From Clostridium sp. (GTDB lineage: Bacteria; Bacillota; Clostridia; Oscillospirales; Ruminococcaceae), in assembly GCA_023664445.1 (NCBI GenBank), contig JAMPFN010000002.1, positions 18,208 to 82,207 on the forward strand: DNA of 64,000 nt. Direction: 5' to 3'. Shown here piece by piece: positions 7,672-60,275 of the stretch; positions within the stretch are counted from its first letter, which is position 1, and each line of letters begins with the position of its first letter. The position numbers and the translations under genes were made by a program. The notes under the pieces were generated by a model. It saw only the letters and a list, made by a program, of their open reading frames with translations. It did not search any database and had not been told where the DNA came from.

Positions 7672-8042
7672 GGGGGCGTAAAGGTTTCGACGGGGGTTTT
7701 GAACCACAATAAGCGAGTAGAGCAGGCGTATACTCTTAAAACTGCACCACGTTTAAATATAAACGCTAGAAATAACATTACTGTAAGCACAAGAAACTTA
7801 CAGGTAGCTGCCTAAGTCGGCTACTGTCCGCCTTTTGAGTACCACGGCAAAAGCTCGGGCATCGATTAGTGGTGAACGTTCTTCCGGAGTGTTCCTGCCG
7901 GCTGAATGTATTCGGAACTACTGATCCCGACAGCTTGTTTATCAGCGGTCGGTGAAAGGGAATCTTAAATGATGAACTACACTCGTAGAAAGTTGTGCGG
8001 ATTGACTCTCGGACACGAGTTCGACTCTCGTCGCCTCCACCA
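7672..8042 (+). ncRNA. ssrA: Transfer-messenger RNA (tmRNA)
   Basis: 371 bases. The 5' end GGGGGCG pairs with the 3' end CGCCTCC, and the CCA end is encoded. The T-arm is GGACACGAGTTCGACTCTCG. The most likely tag frame runs from GCT at 7765 to TAA at 7813-7815 and reads ARNNITVSTRNLQVAA, ending in the usual hydrophobic degron. tmRNA rescues stalled ribosomes and tags the nascent chain for proteolysis. The tag start is inferred from the frame, not from a recognised resume-codon context. Confidence 0.96.
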
Positions 8043-27362: not shown

Positions 27363-27560
27363 ATGAAAAAATTGTTTTTCAGAAATAAAAAAAGAATGCT
27401 TTATGTTTGCAACCCAAGAAAAAATAACGAGTGTGCTAAAACTGAATGTCAAAAAGACTGCTTTATGACAACAAAAAGAAAATTCGCAAAGCGTAATAAA
27501 CTGCATAGACCCGTTAAAGCAGATTGTTCCCTTCTGTATTTTGTGAATTTTCTTTTTTGA
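27363..27560 (+). CDS. Small cysteine-containing phage protein
   Basis: 65 residues from ATG at 27363 after GGGAG. CNPRKNNECAKTEC and CFMTTKRKFAKR are shared by small proteins found at this position in other Clostridia phages. Function unknown. Its 3' end overlaps the leftward HTH gene by 47 bases, so its C-terminus may be foreign sequence from an insertion. Confidence 0.5.
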   Translation: MKKLFFRNKKRMLYVCNPRKNNECAKTECQKDCFMTTKRKFAKRNKLHRPVKADCSLLYFVNFLF

Positions 27561-27723
27561 TGTTAGTATCAAGATATGCATAAATCATTTTTGGAAGCCA
27601 TTCCGGTGGTTTACGAATCCCACGTTCCCAAGCTTCAATTGTACTTTTAGGAATATCGGTTAGGTCACTCAATTTTTGCTGAGTTAAGCCGAAATGTGCT
27701 TTTAAATCTTTTATCCAGTTCAA
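27514..27723 (-). CDS. HTH (XRE-type) regulator of cassette C
   Basis: 69 residues from TTG at 27723, with AAGGAG upstream. HTH at residues 10-45 (GLTQQKLSDLTDIPKSTIEAWERG). It lies downstream of the small leftward gene 27849-27962 and starts 11 bp from the -35 of an opposing promoter. Probably binds the palindrome in the cassette promoter (28014-28030). Confidence 0.75.
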   Translation of the reverse strand: MNWIKDLKAHFGLTQQKLSDLTDIPKSTIEAWERGIRKPPEWLPKMIYAYLDTNIKKENSQNTEGNNLL

Positions 27724-27733
27724 AATATTCTCC

Positions 27734-27762
27734 TTGACTAATTTTCGATTTTAGAGTATAAT
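27734..27762 (+). promoter_or_regulatory. Opposing promoter of cassette C
   Basis: TTGACT (27734-27739), 17 bases, TATAAT (27757-27762). No coding gene follows; it would make the short hairpin RNA at 27768-27850 against the leftward cassette transcript. Confidence 0.7.
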
Positions 27763-27767
27763 ATAAG

Positions 27768-27850
27768 CAAGAACCACAGCAGTAAGGCTTGCAGCGGTTC
27801 TTGGTGGTAATCTAAGTGGCTGGGGTTAACGTGTCAGCCGCTTATTTTTT
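27768..27850 (+). ncRNA. Candidate small antisense RNA of cassette C
   Basis: Directly after the promoter: stem CAAGAACC (27768-27775) with GGTTCTTG (27796-27803), then an intrinsic terminator TAAGTGGCTG (27813-27822) with CAGCCGCTTA (27835-27844) and six T. About 83 bases, complementary to the 3' untranslated part of the leftward small-protein mRNA, up to its stop codon. Confidence 0.5.
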
Positions 27851-27962
27851 ATCTTGTATTGCTTATGTATTCGAGGCATTCAACGATTTCTGCATCGCTG
27901 TGACCGTGACTTCTAAGCCATTCAATCAGTGCAGCCAATTCACTTTTGGTCATTTCGTCCAT
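27849..27962 (-). CDS. Small prophage protein of cassette C
   Basis: 37 residues from ATG at 27962 (MDEMTKSELAALIEWLRS); ATG at 27980 would add six. It ends ECLEYISNTR. Short, acidic and helical, not hydrophobic. A GTGAGGA site and a strong leftward promoter (28009-28037) support it. Function unknown; its place matches the toxin slot of cassettes A and B. Confidence 0.55.
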   Translation of the reverse strand: MDEMTKSELAALIEWLRSHGHSDAEIVECLEYISNTR

Positions 27963-28008
27963 TTCCTCACTTCCTTCCATAAGAGTTTCTTCTCTGCCTT
28001 ACAATAAT

Positions 28009-28037
28009 ATTATACCATACATTGTATGGTATGTCAA
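28009..28037 (-). promoter_or_regulatory. Leftward promoter of cassette C with palindromic operator
   Basis: On the minus strand TTGACA (28037-28032), 17 bases, TATAAT (28014-28009). The spacer is a palindrome, ACCATAC-ATT-GTATGGT (28014-28030). A repressor there would block RNA polymerase directly. Confidence 0.8.
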
Positions 28038-28120
28038 GCCTTTTTTACAAATTTTTTGAAAAAATTTTTTAGCCCTAACCGATTTGGTCAGGGCTTTTAT
28101 TATGCCATAACGGAGGTGTA
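28032..28120 (+). repeat. 89-base direct repeat, copy 1 (copy 2 at 29290-29379)
   Basis: The stretch from TGTCAAGCC to GGAGGTGTA holds a leftward -35 box, an A/T hairpin, a terminator (AGCCCT...AGGGCT) and a ribosome binding site. It is repeated at 29290-29379 with about three differences. The copies bracket cassette A, which suggests insertion or duplication. Confidence 0.8.
28071..28099 (+). terminator. Terminator inside the direct repeat
   Basis: AGCCCT-a-ACC, loop GATTT, GGT-c-AGGGCT, then TTTT (28071-28099). The same hairpin is at about 29330-29357 in the second copy. It would stop rightward or antisense transcripts before the next gene. Confidence 0.65.
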
Positions 28121-28738: not shown

Positions 28739-28930
28739 TTATTCTTTCGGCTTATCCCTGCAAAGTTCGTCAAGCGTTACGCCGAGTGCATCGGCAAGCT
28801 TGATGGCGTTTGAAACAAGGCAATCTCCGTTTCGGAGAATGTTTTCAACGGTTCTTTTAGGCAATCCGGCTGAATCTGCGAGTTGCTGAACTGTTAAGCC
28901 TTTTTCACTGCGAAACTGTTTTAAGTTCAT
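28739..28930 (-). CDS. HTH (XRE-type) regulator of cassette A
   Basis: 63 residues after GAAAGGAAAG. HTH over residues 10-50 (GLTVQQLADSAGLPKRTVEN), ending GVTLDELCRDKPKE. It is a close paralogue of the cassette B regulator at 59610-59810, sharing GDCLVSNAIKLA and ALGVTLDELC. It overlaps the peptide gene upstream by three bases, so the two are coupled. Confidence 0.8.
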   Translation of the reverse strand: MNLKQFRSEKGLTVQQLADSAGLPKRTVENILRNGDCLVSNAIKLADALGVTLDELCRDKPKE

Positions 28931-29031
28931 CTTTTCTTTCCTTTCAAGTAAAAAAATACAATTAGCTTTGCGAGCCCGAAAGCTATAAGCAGAATGCCAA
29001 GTTTTGTAAGTATTCCCATTGCTATTGACAT
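28927..29031 (-). CDS. Small membrane peptide upstream of the HTH gene (cassette A)
   Basis: 34 residues: MSIAMGILTKLGILLIAF..., one membrane helix and the basic end KGKKR. Its TGA overlaps the HTH start (ATGA). The matching slot in cassette B holds a 30-residue membrane peptide. No good ribosome binding site is visible, so translation is less certain. Confidence 0.45.
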   Translation of the reverse strand: MSIAMGILTKLGILLIAFGLAKLIVFFYLKGKKR

Positions 29032-29053
29032 TGGCAATTTAATATGCTATAAT
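29025..29053 (+). promoter_or_regulatory. Opposing (antisense) promoter of cassette A
   Basis: TTGACA (29025-29030), 17 bases, TATAAT (29048-29053), both perfect. It points into the leftward toxin-like gene 29101-29238, so its transcript is antisense to that mRNA. Confidence 0.75.
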
Positions 29054-29059
29054 CATTGG

Positions 29060-29091
29060 TAGCAGTGAGGGTGGTTTCCCACCCTTTGCTA
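29060..29091 (+). ncRNA. 5' hairpin of the candidate antisense RNA, cassette A
   Basis: Just after the promoter: TAGCA-gtg-AGGGTGG, loop TTTC, CCACCCT-t-TGCTA. Cassette B has the same design with different bases (59939-59971). The RNA would run on across the small gene, perhaps to the terminator near 29357, about 300 bases. Confidence 0.5.
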
Positions 29092-29100
29092 TCCATTCTG

Positions 29101-29238
29101 TTAATCCATGAGCTTGTCAATCAGGATAAGCAGAATTCCGATTATGAGGTCTACTAACGCTCCAATCAGAAGATTGATGAGGTCAATCTTTGTTTTAGGT
29201 TTTTTGCGTTTAGTGGACTTCTTTTTGTGCTTTGCCAA
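29101..29238 (-). CDS. Lysine-rich hydrophobic peptide, type I toxin-like (cassette A)
   Basis: 45 residues from TTG at 29238, six bases after GGAGGTGA. A very basic start (MAKHKKKSTKRKKPKTK) is followed by a membrane helix (IDLINLLIGALVDLIIGILL) and DKLMD. Small cationic membrane peptides opposed by an antisense RNA are typical type I toxins (TxpA, BsrG and clostridial prophage toxins). Toxicity is inferred. Confidence 0.6.
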   Translation of the reverse strand: MAKHKKKSTKRKKPKTKIDLINLLIGALVDLIIGILLILIDKLMD

Positions 29239-29266
29239 TGCTTGTCACCTCCTTTCTACATTTATT

Positions 29267-29295
29267 ATTATACCACATTTCAAGGTGGTTGTCAA
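29267..29295 (-). promoter_or_regulatory. Leftward promoter of cassette A with palindromic operator
   Basis: On the minus strand TTGACA (29295-29290), 17 bases, TATAAT (29272-29267). ACCAC (29272-29276) and GTGGT (29285-29289) form an inverted repeat in the spacer, as in cassettes B, C and D. Confidence 0.8.
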
Positions 29296-29379
29296 GCCTT
29301 TTTTACAAATTTTTTGAAAAAATTTTTTTAGCCCTAACCGATTTGGTCAGGGCTTTTCTTATACCATAACGGAGGTGTA
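29290..29379 (+). repeat. 89/90-base direct repeat, copy 2
   Basis: Second copy of the 28032-28120 repeat, with one extra T and two substitutions. It ends in the ribosome binding site of the HNH gene. The simplest history is that cassette A and the 28126 gene entered between a duplicated leader. Confidence 0.8.
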
Positions 29380-58119: not shown

Positions 58120-58314
58120 TCAGCGTATCAGTTCGTCAATAGTGCATTCAAGTGCTTTGGCTATTCGGTTAAGATTTCCGACCGTTACATTTTCGATATT
58201 GATATAACAGTTTTCATAGTCAGTGATTTTTTTGTAGTGAACGCCGGAAAGCTCTGCTAATTCTTTCCGGCTTATTCCTTTTTGTTCACGGATTTCTTTG
58301 ATGTTATTCGCCAT
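58120..58314 (-). CDS. HTH (XRE-type) regulator of the hicAB cassette
   Basis: 64 residues from ATG at 58314, overlapping the end of hicB. HTH at about 5-45 (IREQKGISRKELAELSGVHY). It probably represses the promoter at 58878-58906. HicAB systems often carry the DNA-binding part in HicB; here it is a separate gene. Confidence 0.8.
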   Translation of the reverse strand: MANNIKEIREQKGISRKELAELSGVHYKKITDYENCYINIENVTVGNLNRIAKALECTIDELIR

Positions 58315-58597
58315 TGTTACTGCACTCCACAAGTGGATAATTTGTTGTGTCGGCAAGAATCAGCGTTACAAAGCTGTCTGAATCCGTTTTGATGTCATTG
58401 ATTGCCGAGGCTTTTGGAATTGGTTCACCATCTTTTTCGTGACAGCAAAGCATCATTGCAAGTGCATCTTCTGCCATTTCCATTCCCTCAAGTATTGAAT
58501 CGCCACTTGTGTGACATCCATCAATATCGGGAAAATCAATAGCGTACAATCCATTTTTTTCAAGCGTAAAAACTGCTGGGTAAACGTACTTAGCCAT
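58304..58597 (-). CDS. hicB: HicB family antitoxin
   Basis: 97 residues. The HicB core is clear: YPAVFTLEKNGLYAIDFPDI, GCHTSGDSILEGMEMAEDAL. Binds and blocks HicA. No HTH or ribbon-helix-helix at its C-terminus, which fits the separate HTH gene after it. It is separated from hicA by hairpins at 58642-58681. Confidence 0.93.
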   Translation of the reverse strand: MAKYVYPAVFTLEKNGLYAIDFPDIDGCHTSGDSILEGMEMAEDALAMMLCCHEKDGEPIPKASAINDIKTDSDSFVTLILADTTNYPLVECSNNGE

Positions 58598-58659
58598 TTT
58601 TAATCAGCTCCTTTTTATTTCAGAGAGGGAAAGCAAAAGCATTTACGCCCCTTTAGGGG

Positions 58660-58681
58660 TTGGGGCTTATTTCAGCCCCAA
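58660..58681 (-). other. Hairpin over the hicA stop codon
   Basis: TTGGGGCT (58660-58667) pairs with AGCCCCAA (58674-58681) with the hicA stop at its edge, and CCCC-ttta-GGGG lies next to it. No U-run; it may stall or process the mRNA between toxin and antitoxin. Confidence 0.5.
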
Positions 58682-58852
58682 GTCTTTGAAGATTTTGTTT
58701 ACGGTTCCTGTTGCAATTTCTTTTCCTTTGTGGCGTTCAACCTGTGTTTTTTGGTTGTTCCGTGGATTGTACCAAATTTCGTGGTTTCCGCCTTGCCTTA
58801 AAAGTCTGCAACCGCTTTTTTTAAGTTTTTTTATAAGCTCACCGTACTGCAT
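58667..58852 (-). CDS. hicA: HicA family toxin (mRNA interferase)
   Basis: 61 residues, full length for the family. MQYGELIKKLKKSGCRLLRQGGNHEIWYN holds the double-stranded RNA-binding-like fold and the catalytic His (GNHEIW), and HKGKEIATGTVNKIFKDLG follows. Cleaves mRNA when free of HicB. First gene of the cassette. Confidence 0.95.
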   Translation of the reverse strand: MQYGELIKKLKKSGCRLLRQGGNHEIWYNPRNNQKTQVERHKGKEIATGTVNKIFKDLGLK

Positions 58853-58877
58853 TCGCTTTCCCCCTTTCTGTAATTAT

Positions 58878-58906
58878 ATTATACCACGTTTTCGTGGATT
58901 TGTCAA
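58878..58906 (-). promoter_or_regulatory. Leftward promoter of the hicAB cassette with palindromic operator
   Basis: On the minus strand TTGACA (58906-58901), 17 bases, TATAAT (58883-58878). CCACG-TTTT-CGTGG (58884-58897) fills the spacer. Same design as cassettes A, B and C. Confidence 0.82.
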
Positions 58907-58938
58907 GCCTTTTTTTAAAATTTTTTTGATTTTTTTAT

Positions 58939-59609: not shown

Positions 59610-59810
59610 TTATTCGCTTGTTTTCTCGTCATCGCTCCAGCAAAGTTCATCAAGTGTAACTCCTAATGCTTTGGCAAGCTTGATGGCATTTGAAACAAGG
59701 CAGTCACCACGTTTTTGAATGTCCTCAATTGTACGTTTAGGTATTCCGGTGACTTCGACAAGTTTAGGGATTGTCATTCCCCTTTCGGTTCGGATTTGTT
59801 TTAGGTTCAT
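59610..59810 (-). CDS. HTH (XRE-type) regulator of cassette B
   Basis: 66 residues from ATG at 59810 after AAAGGAG. HTH like the cassette A regulator (MNLKQIRTERGMTIPKLVEV, GDCLVSNAIKLAKALGVTLD). The two are paralogues about 31 kb apart. It probably represses the cassette B promoter. Confidence 0.8.
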   Translation of the reverse strand: MNLKQIRTERGMTIPKLVEVTGIPKRTIEDIQKRGDCLVSNAIKLAKALGVTLDELCWSDDEKTSE

Positions 59811-59811
59811 T

Positions 59812-59904
59812 TTATAATTCTCCTTTGAATGCAAAATAGATAAACAAAAGTATTCCGACCAATTCAAGAGCAAATAAAAAAATTTTTAAAACTTCTTTTT
59901 TCAT
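59812..59904 (-). CDS. Small membrane peptide upstream of the HTH gene (cassette B)
   Basis: 30 residues: MKKEVLKIFLFALELVGILL then FIYFAFKGEL, a single membrane helix. It ends two bases before the HTH gene start and carries that gene's ribosome binding site. Same slot as the 34-residue peptide of cassette A. AAGGGTG is a weak upstream site. Confidence 0.5.
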   Translation of the reverse strand: MKKEVLKIFLFALELVGILLFIYFAFKGEL

Positions 59905-59905
59905 C

Positions 59906-59934
59906 TTGACACCCTTTGAAACTTATGGTAAAAT
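59906..59934 (+). promoter_or_regulatory. Opposing (antisense) promoter of cassette B
   Basis: TTGACA (59906-59911), 17 bases, TAAAAT (59929-59934). It points into the small gene 59968-60090, as the matching promoter does in cassette A. Confidence 0.7.
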
Positions 59935-59938
59935 CTTA

Positions 59939-59971
59939 TTAAGGGTGAGGGCTTTCGCCCTCTTCCCTTAA
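59939..59971 (+). ncRNA. 5' hairpin of the candidate antisense RNA, cassette B
   Basis: TTAAGGG-t-GAGGGC, loop TTTC, GCCCTC-tt-CCCTTAA. Same architecture and loop as cassette A but different paired bases, i.e. compensatory changes. The transcript could run to the terminator at 60186-60224, about 285 bases. Confidence 0.5.
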
Positions 59972-60090
59972 TCTTTCAGAATGTGTATCAGGTAAAGTAT
60001 CCAGCCTAACCACGATACTATTCTTACTGTGAGCTTTTCGAGTTCTGTGATAATTTCGGAAAGCTCTTTAATTTTATCCTTAAGCTTCAA
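59968..60090 (-). CDS. Amphipathic small peptide, toxin-like slot (cassette B)
   Basis: 40 residues from TTG at 60090 after AAAGGTGGTGA: MKLKDKIKELSEIITELEKL, then TVRIVSWLGWILYLIHILKD. A charged helix is followed by a Trp-containing hydrophobic helix. It lies between the cassette B promoter and the antisense hairpin, as the lysine-rich peptide does in cassette A. Confidence 0.55.
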   Translation of the reverse strand: MKLKDKIKELSEIITELEKLTVRIVSWLGWILYLIHILKD

Positions 60091-60117
60091 GTTGTTCACC
60101 ACCTTTCTACATTTATT

Positions 60118-60146
60118 ATTATACCACGTTTTAACGTGTTTGTCAA
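60118..60146 (-). promoter_or_regulatory. Leftward promoter of cassette B with palindromic operator
   Basis: On the minus strand TTGACA (60146-60141), 17 bases, TATAAT (60123-60118). CACGTT-TT-AACGTG (60125-60138) lies in the spacer. Confidence 0.82.
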
Positions 60147-60185
60147 GCCTTTTTTTGAAAAAAAATCAAAAAAATTTGAAAAATT

Positions 60186-60224
60186 TTTCCCGTATCGGTA
60201 TAATTCCGGTGCGGGAATTTTTTT
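60186..60224 (+). terminator. Terminator before the recombinase operon
   Basis: TTCCCG pairs with CGGGAA, with an inner CGG/CCG, then TTTTTTT. It would end rightward or antisense transcripts coming through cassette B. Confidence 0.8.
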
Positions 60225-60275
60225 GACTTGGAATAAAAGCTGCCGGATTTTAAAAAGAAATCGGAGGAAAAACAG

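What the first reader, a model, noticed from the sequence alone, without database searches (positions are those of the whole stretch)
28739..29295. Cassette A: second copy of the same design, with compensatory changes in the antisense hairpin
It has the same order as cassette B: promoter with palindrome, 45-residue lysine-rich membrane peptide, antisense promoter (perfect TTGACA-17-TATAAT), membrane peptide overlapping an HTH start. The antisense 5' hairpins of A and B keep the same stem lengths and TTTC loop but differ in paired bases, which argues for selection on RNA structure.
Basis: partly seen in the sequence, partly recalled or inferred. Interest (0 to 1): 0.85.

Follow-up and report, generated by a model that had tools for sequence, protein, structure and literature searches.

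The report
Doubly locked prophage membrane-toxin cassette
A likely prophage carries a small gene cassette, seen in 66 distinct versions in bacterial genomes and viral contigs, that encodes two tiny predicted membrane peptides, the first a likely toxin, which would be kept silent both by an antisense RNA and by a small DNA-binding repressor, a combination I did not find described.

Summary
On the minus strand lie a promoter with a palindrome between -35 and -10, a 45-aa lysine-rich membrane peptide, a convergent perfect TTGACA-17-TATAAT promoter, a hairpin, a 30-aa membrane peptide, and a 63-aa Xre protein overlapping it by 4 bases. Cassette B is a diverged copy 31 kb away. Among 102 distinct regions around Xre relatives, 66 have the whole cassette. 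The hairpin keeps pairing through changed bases, but 31 of 38 distinct tetraloops are GNRA (28) or UUCG (3) on the mRNA strand and none on the antisense strand, so selection acts mainly on the mRNA, just after the peptide's stop codon. The antisense promoter and terminator are conserved. One Xre residue (E or Q) matches the outer operator base in 74 of 74 scorable rows of 80, which ties repressor to operator. The two peptides co-vary (r 0.91) but hardly follow the Xre protein: a swappable effector pair under an exchangeable control unit. Best reading: a type I toxin-antitoxin-like locus with a dedicated co-transcribed repressor. Toxicity, transcription and binding are untested.

The parts
29267..29296 (-). 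Cassette A sense promoter; operator-like near-palindrome CCACCTTGAAATGTGG at 29273-29288, in the spacer
   Evidence: operator matched to the HTH residue
29101..29238 (-). Peptide 1 of A, 45 aa, lysine-rich then hydrophobic; likely toxin
   Evidence: two unnamed relatives at 78 percent identity besides itself
29060..29091 (-). Hairpin 15 bases after the stop of peptide 1; GAAA loop on the mRNA strand, TTTC on the antisense strand
29025..29053 (+). Antisense promoter, TTGACA-17-TATAAT with extended -10
29060..29360 (+). Predicted antisense RNA across the hairpin, peptide 1 and the sense promoter, ending at a terminator-like hairpin (29330-29360)
   Evidence: promoter, terminator; ends are inferred
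28927..29019 (-). Peptide 2 of A, 30 aa, hydrophobic
28739..28930 (-). Xre-family HTH protein of A, 63 aa (HTH_3, 1e-9)
60118..60147 (-). Cassette B sense promoter with palindrome CACGTTAAAACGTG
59968..60102 (-). Peptide 1 of B, 44 aa from GTG (40 aa from TTG); PHROG 7712 (unknown function), 9.5e-8
59939..59971 (-). Hairpin of B at the stop of peptide 1; GAAA loop on the mRNA strand
59906..59934 (+). Antisense promoter of B, TTGACA-17-TAAAAT; terminator-like hairpin at about 60187-60225
59812..59904 (-). Peptide 2 of B, 30 aa, hydrophobic
59610..59810 (-). Xre-family HTH protein of B, 66 aa from its ATG; 66 percent identical to that of A over 59 residues

Best explanation
This is a cassette of a likely prophage in which the gene of a 45-residue predicted membrane toxin would be silenced twice: by a predicted antisense RNA from a convergent promoter, and by a small Xre protein, encoded last in the same predicted operon, that is predicted to bind the palindrome inside the toxin promoter. 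Shown by sequence: the order of parts; the conservation of both promoters, the antisense terminator, the hairpin after the stop of peptide 1 and the two peptides; the tie between the Xre residue and the operator base. Inferred: (1) the Xre protein keeps RNA polymerase off the promoter and so limits its own operon; (2) the antisense RNA pairs with the mRNA over hairpin, coding region and ribosome site and blocks translation or brings RNase III cleavage; (3) the GNRA-capped hairpin steadies or processes the toxin mRNA and offers its loop to the complementary antisense loop; (4) peptide 1 damages the membrane; (5) peptide 2 is its dedicated membrane partner, a second toxin subunit or an antidote. 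Loss of the prophage or of the repressor would then release translation of the toxin and harm the cell, so the cassette would act as an addiction or exclusion module.
For: 66 of 102 distinct HTH regions have the whole cassette. Operator-promoter searched alone in viral contigs: 21 of 21 stretches have a small ORF and an Xre protein of this family behind it; 12 of the 21 were contigs already found by the HTH, 9 were new (L120 seen). HTH residue E with outer base G in 54 of 54 and Q with C in 20 of 20 rows, Fisher 1.7e-18; the label needs 3 changes on the HTH tree. Antisense promoter score 11.2 against 7.6 in shuffles and 7.9 on the sense strand, extended -10 in 56 of 65. Antisense terminator in 43 of 66 against 1.0 expected and 9 on the sense strand. 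Hairpin: 242 of 266 cells paired, 31 of 38 tetraloops GNRA or UUCG on the mRNA strand. Peptide 1 pN/pS 0.26, changes by codon position 600, 317, 1270; 56 of 66 pass a hydrophobicity mark. Peptides 1 and 2 co-vary, r 0.91, and 0.90 given the HTH. One relative of the control unit sits on DUF4160/DUF2442 (L028), a pair reported as type II system dhiTA (PMC8198452, table passage).
Against: No toxicity, transcript or binding data. Nine of 102 regions have another or unresolved layout and in 27 my finder saw no operator-promoter; some of these are cut by contig ends or are remote relatives, and in at least one (L042) the finder missed an operator-like promoter that one search shows. Ten of 66 first peptides fall below the hydrophobicity mark; two (L034, L081) are not hydrophobic at all, nor are their second peptides. 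Four of 65 regions have a weak or no antisense promoter (L020, L022, L083, L094). 23 of 66 lack a terminator by my score. The antisense strand folds better overall in 51 of 64 stretches. No Rfam family matches and no curated toxin family covers the peptides.
Confidence: 0.7

Rival explanations
1. A phage exclusion or abortive-infection module: peptides 1 and 2 form a membrane pore that is released when an infecting phage disturbs the repressor or the antisense RNA, and any prophage stabilisation is a side effect.
For: Two co-varying membrane peptides; accessory placement: patchy carriage and, in 31 of 72 HNH relatives examined, no operator-promoter in the slot where A sits (some of the 31 have little sequence there).
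Against: No match to PADLOC families for the four peptides scanned, and only weak general HTH matches for the Xre proteins; no trigger is visible.
Confidence: 0.3
2. A two-gene type II toxin-antitoxin system: the Xre protein is the protein antitoxin of peptide 1 and the convergent promoter is incidental.
For: Toxin gene before an Xre gene in one operon is known for HTH-controlled type II systems (recalled); the HicA-HicB-Xre unit of this window has a promoter of the same build.
Against: HTH and peptide 1 hardly co-vary once peptide 2 is allowed for (partial r 0.11, permutation maximum 0.13), and 197 of 277 HTH-close pairs have unlike first peptides. Antisense promoter and terminator are conserved.
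Confidence: 0.08
3. A regulator with a membrane partner, as CylR1/CylR2: peptide 2 and the Xre protein form one sensory unit and peptide 1 is a leader or signal peptide.
For: The HTH profile matches CylR2 in the Protein Data Bank (5e-5). That CylR2 has a membrane partner, CylR1, is recalled; one search gave listings only.
Against: Peptide 2 follows peptide 1 and not the HTH (0.90 against 0.05 as partial correlations), although it lies next to the HTH gene.
Confidence: 0.07

Closest known systems
yonT / SR6 / yoyJ type I system of prophage SPbeta, Bacillus subtilis (PMC5848175; abstract and passages seen)
   Same: Prophage operon with two small toxin genes; an antisense RNA promoter between them with an extended -10; the RNA overlaps the 3' end of the first toxin gene.
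   Different: Here an Xre gene is the third gene and its operator sits in the toxin promoter; the predicted antisense RNA runs across the whole first gene; a GNRA hairpin follows the first stop. Sequence relatedness was not tested. No Xre repressor appears in the passages I saw; I did not read the paper whole.
Type I systems of Clostridia such as the RCd loci of C. difficile (PMC6563280; listing and two passages seen)
   Same: Small hydrophobic peptide and convergent antisense RNA, also on prophages (abstract start).
   Different: In that review the words repressor, transcriptional regulator, Ruminococc and Lachnospira do not occur; Sigma B-dependent promoters are described there, not a co-transcribed repressor.
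Type II toxin-antitoxin operons with an HTH protein (HicAB in this window; dhiTA, PMC8198452)
   Same: Autoregulated-looking operon with a palindromic promoter; the same Xre family stands behind DUF4160/DUF2442 in L028.
   Different: In the cassette the HTH hardly co-varies with peptide 1, and there is an antisense promoter.
CylR1/CylR2 regulator pair (CylR2 matched)
   Same: Small Xre protein of about 66 aa; encoded with a small membrane protein (recalled).
   Different: Here the membrane peptide follows peptide 1, not the Xre protein, and an antisense promoter lies between.

Membership tests
Type I toxin-antitoxin system | Small hydrophobic toxin ORF | tested here: met
   56 of 66 first peptides pass the hydrophobicity mark; ORF under purifying selection. 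Two of 66 are not hydrophobic.
Type I toxin-antitoxin system | Own promoter and end for an RNA antisense to the toxin gene | tested here: met
   Promoter conserved over 65 regions, terminator-like hairpin in 43 of 66; sequence evidence only, no transcript seen.
Type I toxin-antitoxin system | The RNA silences the toxin mRNA | not testable with these tools
   Needs expression experiments.
Type I toxin-antitoxin system | The peptide is toxic | not testable with these tools
   Needs expression experiments.
Type I toxin-antitoxin system | Member of a described RNA family | tested here: not met
   No Rfam match at gathering score in the window or 13 loci apart from tmRNA and tRNA; SIB antitoxin RNA only at 20.8 bits against a cut-off of 56. 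Not a defining feature of the class as such.
yonT/SR6/yoyJ | Two toxin genes in one operon with an antisense promoter between them | tested here: met
   Layout only, compared with the passages.
yonT/SR6/yoyJ | Sequence homology of the toxins and the RNA | not tested
   No direct comparison was run.
Type II toxin-antitoxin system | Cognate protein antitoxin that pairs with the toxin | tested here: inconclusive
   HTH-peptide 1 partial r 0.11 with permutation maximum 0.13, against 0.90 for peptides 1 and 2: the HTH is unlikely to be it, peptide 2 could be.
Operon under its own Xre repressor | The repressor recognises an operator in its own promoter | tested here: met
   54 of 54 and 20 of 20 rows agree on residue and base; indirect, no binding assay.

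The most novel reading that the evidence does not exclude
A new class of prophage toxin-antitoxin locus with three separate brakes on one membrane toxin: an antisense RNA, a dedicated Xre repressor and a cognate membrane antidote (peptide 2). It is built from two exchangeable modules: a control unit (operator plus Xre protein) that can be mounted on different effectors, a type II pair among them, and an effector unit (peptide 1, antisense RNA, peptide 2) with many sequence types. The mRNA carries a GNRA hairpin right after the toxin stop codon that is the docking site for the antisense loop.
Probability: 0.3. Interest if true: 0.85.

Novelty: new variant of a known kind. Interest (0 to 1): 0.68.

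Why it matters
If right, it adds a type I-like toxin-antitoxin architecture whose toxin promoter has its own co-transcribed repressor, and a large set of paired membrane peptides without named families, in mobile elements of Clostridia. The E/Q switch gives a ready test of repressor specificity, and the hairpin on the mRNA strand makes the question of where antisense pairing starts directly testable. Six literature searches aimed at such a system and three on neighbouring topics listed no paper that, by title and start of abstract, describes it; only open-licence PubMed Central papers are held.

Tried and rejected
Rejected: intrinsic terminator as the role of the hairpin; I saw no T run after it on the mRNA strand in the stretches (by eye). 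Not used as decisive: fold energy by strand (antisense lower in 51 of 64), because the stretch holds the antisense promoter; the loop identities were used instead. Weak: wobble asymmetry 10 to 5 (this count includes L076 and L127, which are not full cassettes).

Led nowhere or nearly so: family libraries for the peptides. 37 first peptides (of 66) were scanned: Pfam and NCBIfam gave only single or double weak matches, the best being coiled-coil or unrelated families at about 1e-5 to 1e-4; PHROGs gave family 7712 of unknown function for 9 of 37, other unknown families, and weak holin (4 of 37, 0.002) and haemolysin (1 of 37, 1e-4) matches. Plasmid records: 1 match, from Streptomyces. Phage records: 4 matches, the best without annotation. 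Strict operator pattern in 391 genomes of the class: only the window's own genome. Relatives of the neighbouring HNH gene: 72 fetched, the first 31 looked at, none with an operator-promoter upstream on that strand by my pattern; L163 and L164 have under 250 bases there.

Rows dropped before counts: 22 duplicate or re-fetched regions (124 to 102); L127 and L076 left out of cassette counts, and L125 too; 63 non-redundant cassettes; two rows skipped (L041, L127) and two of its 80 rows misread by my pattern (L144, L160; read by eye they agree with the rule). The cassette finder requires a palindromic promoter, so 'operator in 66 of 66' would be circular and is not claimed. The first automatic choice of the peptide 2 frame was wrong for several loci; one search took the most hydrophobic open frame ending near the HTH start, which favours hydrophobic frames, so its 64 of 66 hydrophobic is not an independent test.

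Full report
What is there. On the minus strand of window 28739-29296 lie, in order of transcription, a promoter whose spacer holds CCACCTTGAAATGTGG, a 45-codon ORF with a good ribosome site, a hairpin 15 bases after its stop, a 30-codon ORF and a 63-codon Xre gene that overlaps it by 4 bases. On the plus strand a perfect TTGACA-17-TATAAT points back across the 45-codon ORF, and beyond the sense promoter stands a terminator-like hairpin with a T run. Cassette B, 59610-60147, repeats this with diverged sequence; its Xre protein is 66 percent identical over 59 residues. A third Xre match, with a stop inside, lies on another contig. An HNH endonuclease gene of a phage family follows A and a gene of a phage family of unknown function follows B, then two ORFs that I read as large serine recombinases (not searched); this is why I call the element a likely prophage. 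Both cassettes run against these neighbours.

How wide it is. With the Xre protein and then an alignment of relatives I fetched 14, 49 and 59 loci from viral contigs, genomes and viral contigs again. With A and B these are 124 regions, 102 of them distinct. 66 have the whole cassette. Nine have an operator-promoter with another or unresolved layout, among them L028 with DUF4160 and DUF2442, a pair listed as the type II system dhiTA in PMC8198452 (table passage). In 27 my finder saw no such promoter; several of these are cut by contig ends or are remote relatives, and L042 was missed by it. Records with the HTH are named Ruminococcus, Oscillospiraceae, Lachnospiraceae, Blautia, Clostridium and, with other cargo, Sedimentibacter. 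The HTH is patchy: 4 of 391 genomes of the class and 2 of 11 of the genus, the window's own counted each time. In one genome of the same genus (L139) a cassette sits before what looks like the same HNH gene start but with another first peptide, the one of L025, which clusters with B.

Repressor and operator. A search of viral contigs for the operator-promoter alone gave 21 stretches; all 21 have a small ORF and an Xre protein of this family behind it. Twelve of these contigs had already come up by the HTH, nine had not (L120). In the HTH the residue after RT[ILV] is E or Q. E goes with outer base G in 54 of 54 rows and Q with C in 20 of 20 (Fisher 1.7e-18, which ignores relatedness); the remaining 6 of 80 rows are four with A or T at that base, all E, and two that my pattern misread. 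On a tree of 80 HTH proteins the label needs 3 changes, 3-4 in bootstrap trees, although the well-supported branches alone force only 1. That the residue lies in the recognition helix is recalled from the fold. Cassettes with near-identical first peptides but different classes, such as L088 and L063 (similarity 0.98) or L040 and L037 (0.87), differ in operator and HTH together.

Antisense RNA. Over 65 regions the best promoter on the antisense strand between hairpin and HTH scores 11.2 on average, against 7.6 in dinucleotide shuffles and 7.9 on the sense strand; 56 of 65 have an extended -10. The low sense-strand score also gives no sign of a separate promoter for the Xre gene. A terminator-like hairpin lies on the antisense strand beyond the sense promoter in 43 of 66, against 1.0 expected in mononucleotide shuffles and 9 on the sense strand. 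L020, L022, L083 and L094 have a weak or no antisense promoter by this score.

The hairpin. It stands 3-39 bases after the stop, most often 4-7. In 38 distinct tetraloop hairpins 242 of 266 cells of the first seven pairs are Watson-Crick, against 147 when the 3' letters are shuffled. On the mRNA strand 28 loops are GNRA and 3 are UUCG, two classic stable loop types (recalled) that replace each other here; read on the antisense strand none is of either type. I therefore place selection chiefly on the mRNA. The same hairpin would lie near the 5' end of the antisense RNA, 4-33 bases after the -10 box for the 42 higher-scoring promoters, and may serve there too. Hairpins with 3-, 5- or 6-base loops are outside the 38, A's closest relatives among them, and the antisense strand had the lower fold energy in 51 of 64 stretches.

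Two peptides as a pair. Peptide 1 is under purifying selection (pN/pS 0.26) and falls into 17 similarity clusters among 63 cassettes. A second ORF ending near the HTH start was found in 66 of 66. Similarities of peptides 1 and 2 correlate at 0.91, and at 0.90 after allowing for the HTH (permutation maximum 0.13); the HTH correlates with peptide 1 at 0.35 and with peptide 2 at 0.33, and at 0.11 and 0.05 after allowing for the other peptide. Peptide 2 lies next to the HTH gene, so linkage alone would predict the reverse. Among HTH-distant pairs r is still 0.80. The pair is thus a unit apart from its control, and peptide 2 probably acts with peptide 1.

Mechanism and limits. The layout fits a type I toxin-antitoxin locus with an added dedicated repressor. 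The nearest described case I saw is yonT/SR6/yoyJ, where an antisense RNA from an extended -10 promoter lies between two toxin genes of one operon (PMC5848175, abstract and passages). No Xre repressor appears in the passages seen, but I did not read that paper whole. Toxicity, transcripts and binding are untested here. Whether the natural role is addiction or exclusion of other phages cannot be told from sequence.

Literature. Searches. I saw their listings, plus passages of PMC6563280, PMC5848175, PMC12548467, PMC8198452 and PMC12654330. None that I saw describes this combination.

Noticed in passing
window 58120-58907: A HicA-HicB-Xre unit on the minus strand has a perfect promoter with CCACGAAAACGTGG in the spacer, close to the operator of A and B; L127 is a relative.
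   Followed up: partly
window 27514-28038: A 43-aa ORF and an Xre-like ORF on the minus strand stand behind a perfect promoter whose spacer holds another palindrome (CCATACAATGTATGG): possibly a third self-regulated unit.
   Followed up: no
L003 (G000:C100:4144-4257): A third Xre match in the same genome, 87 percent identical over 38 residues, with a stop codon inside: a likely decayed copy.
   Followed up: no
L028, L053, L056, L122: The same operator and Xre family stand with other cargo; only L028 was identified (DUF4160/DUF2442), the other three proteins match no Pfam family.
   Followed up: partly
L034 and L081: Cassettes with hairpin and antisense promoter whose two peptides are both not hydrophobic; a different effector chemistry?
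   Followed up: no
window 7672-8042: A tmRNA gene (Rfam RF00023) on the plus strand; tmRNA genes are common attachment sites (recalled).
   Followed up: no
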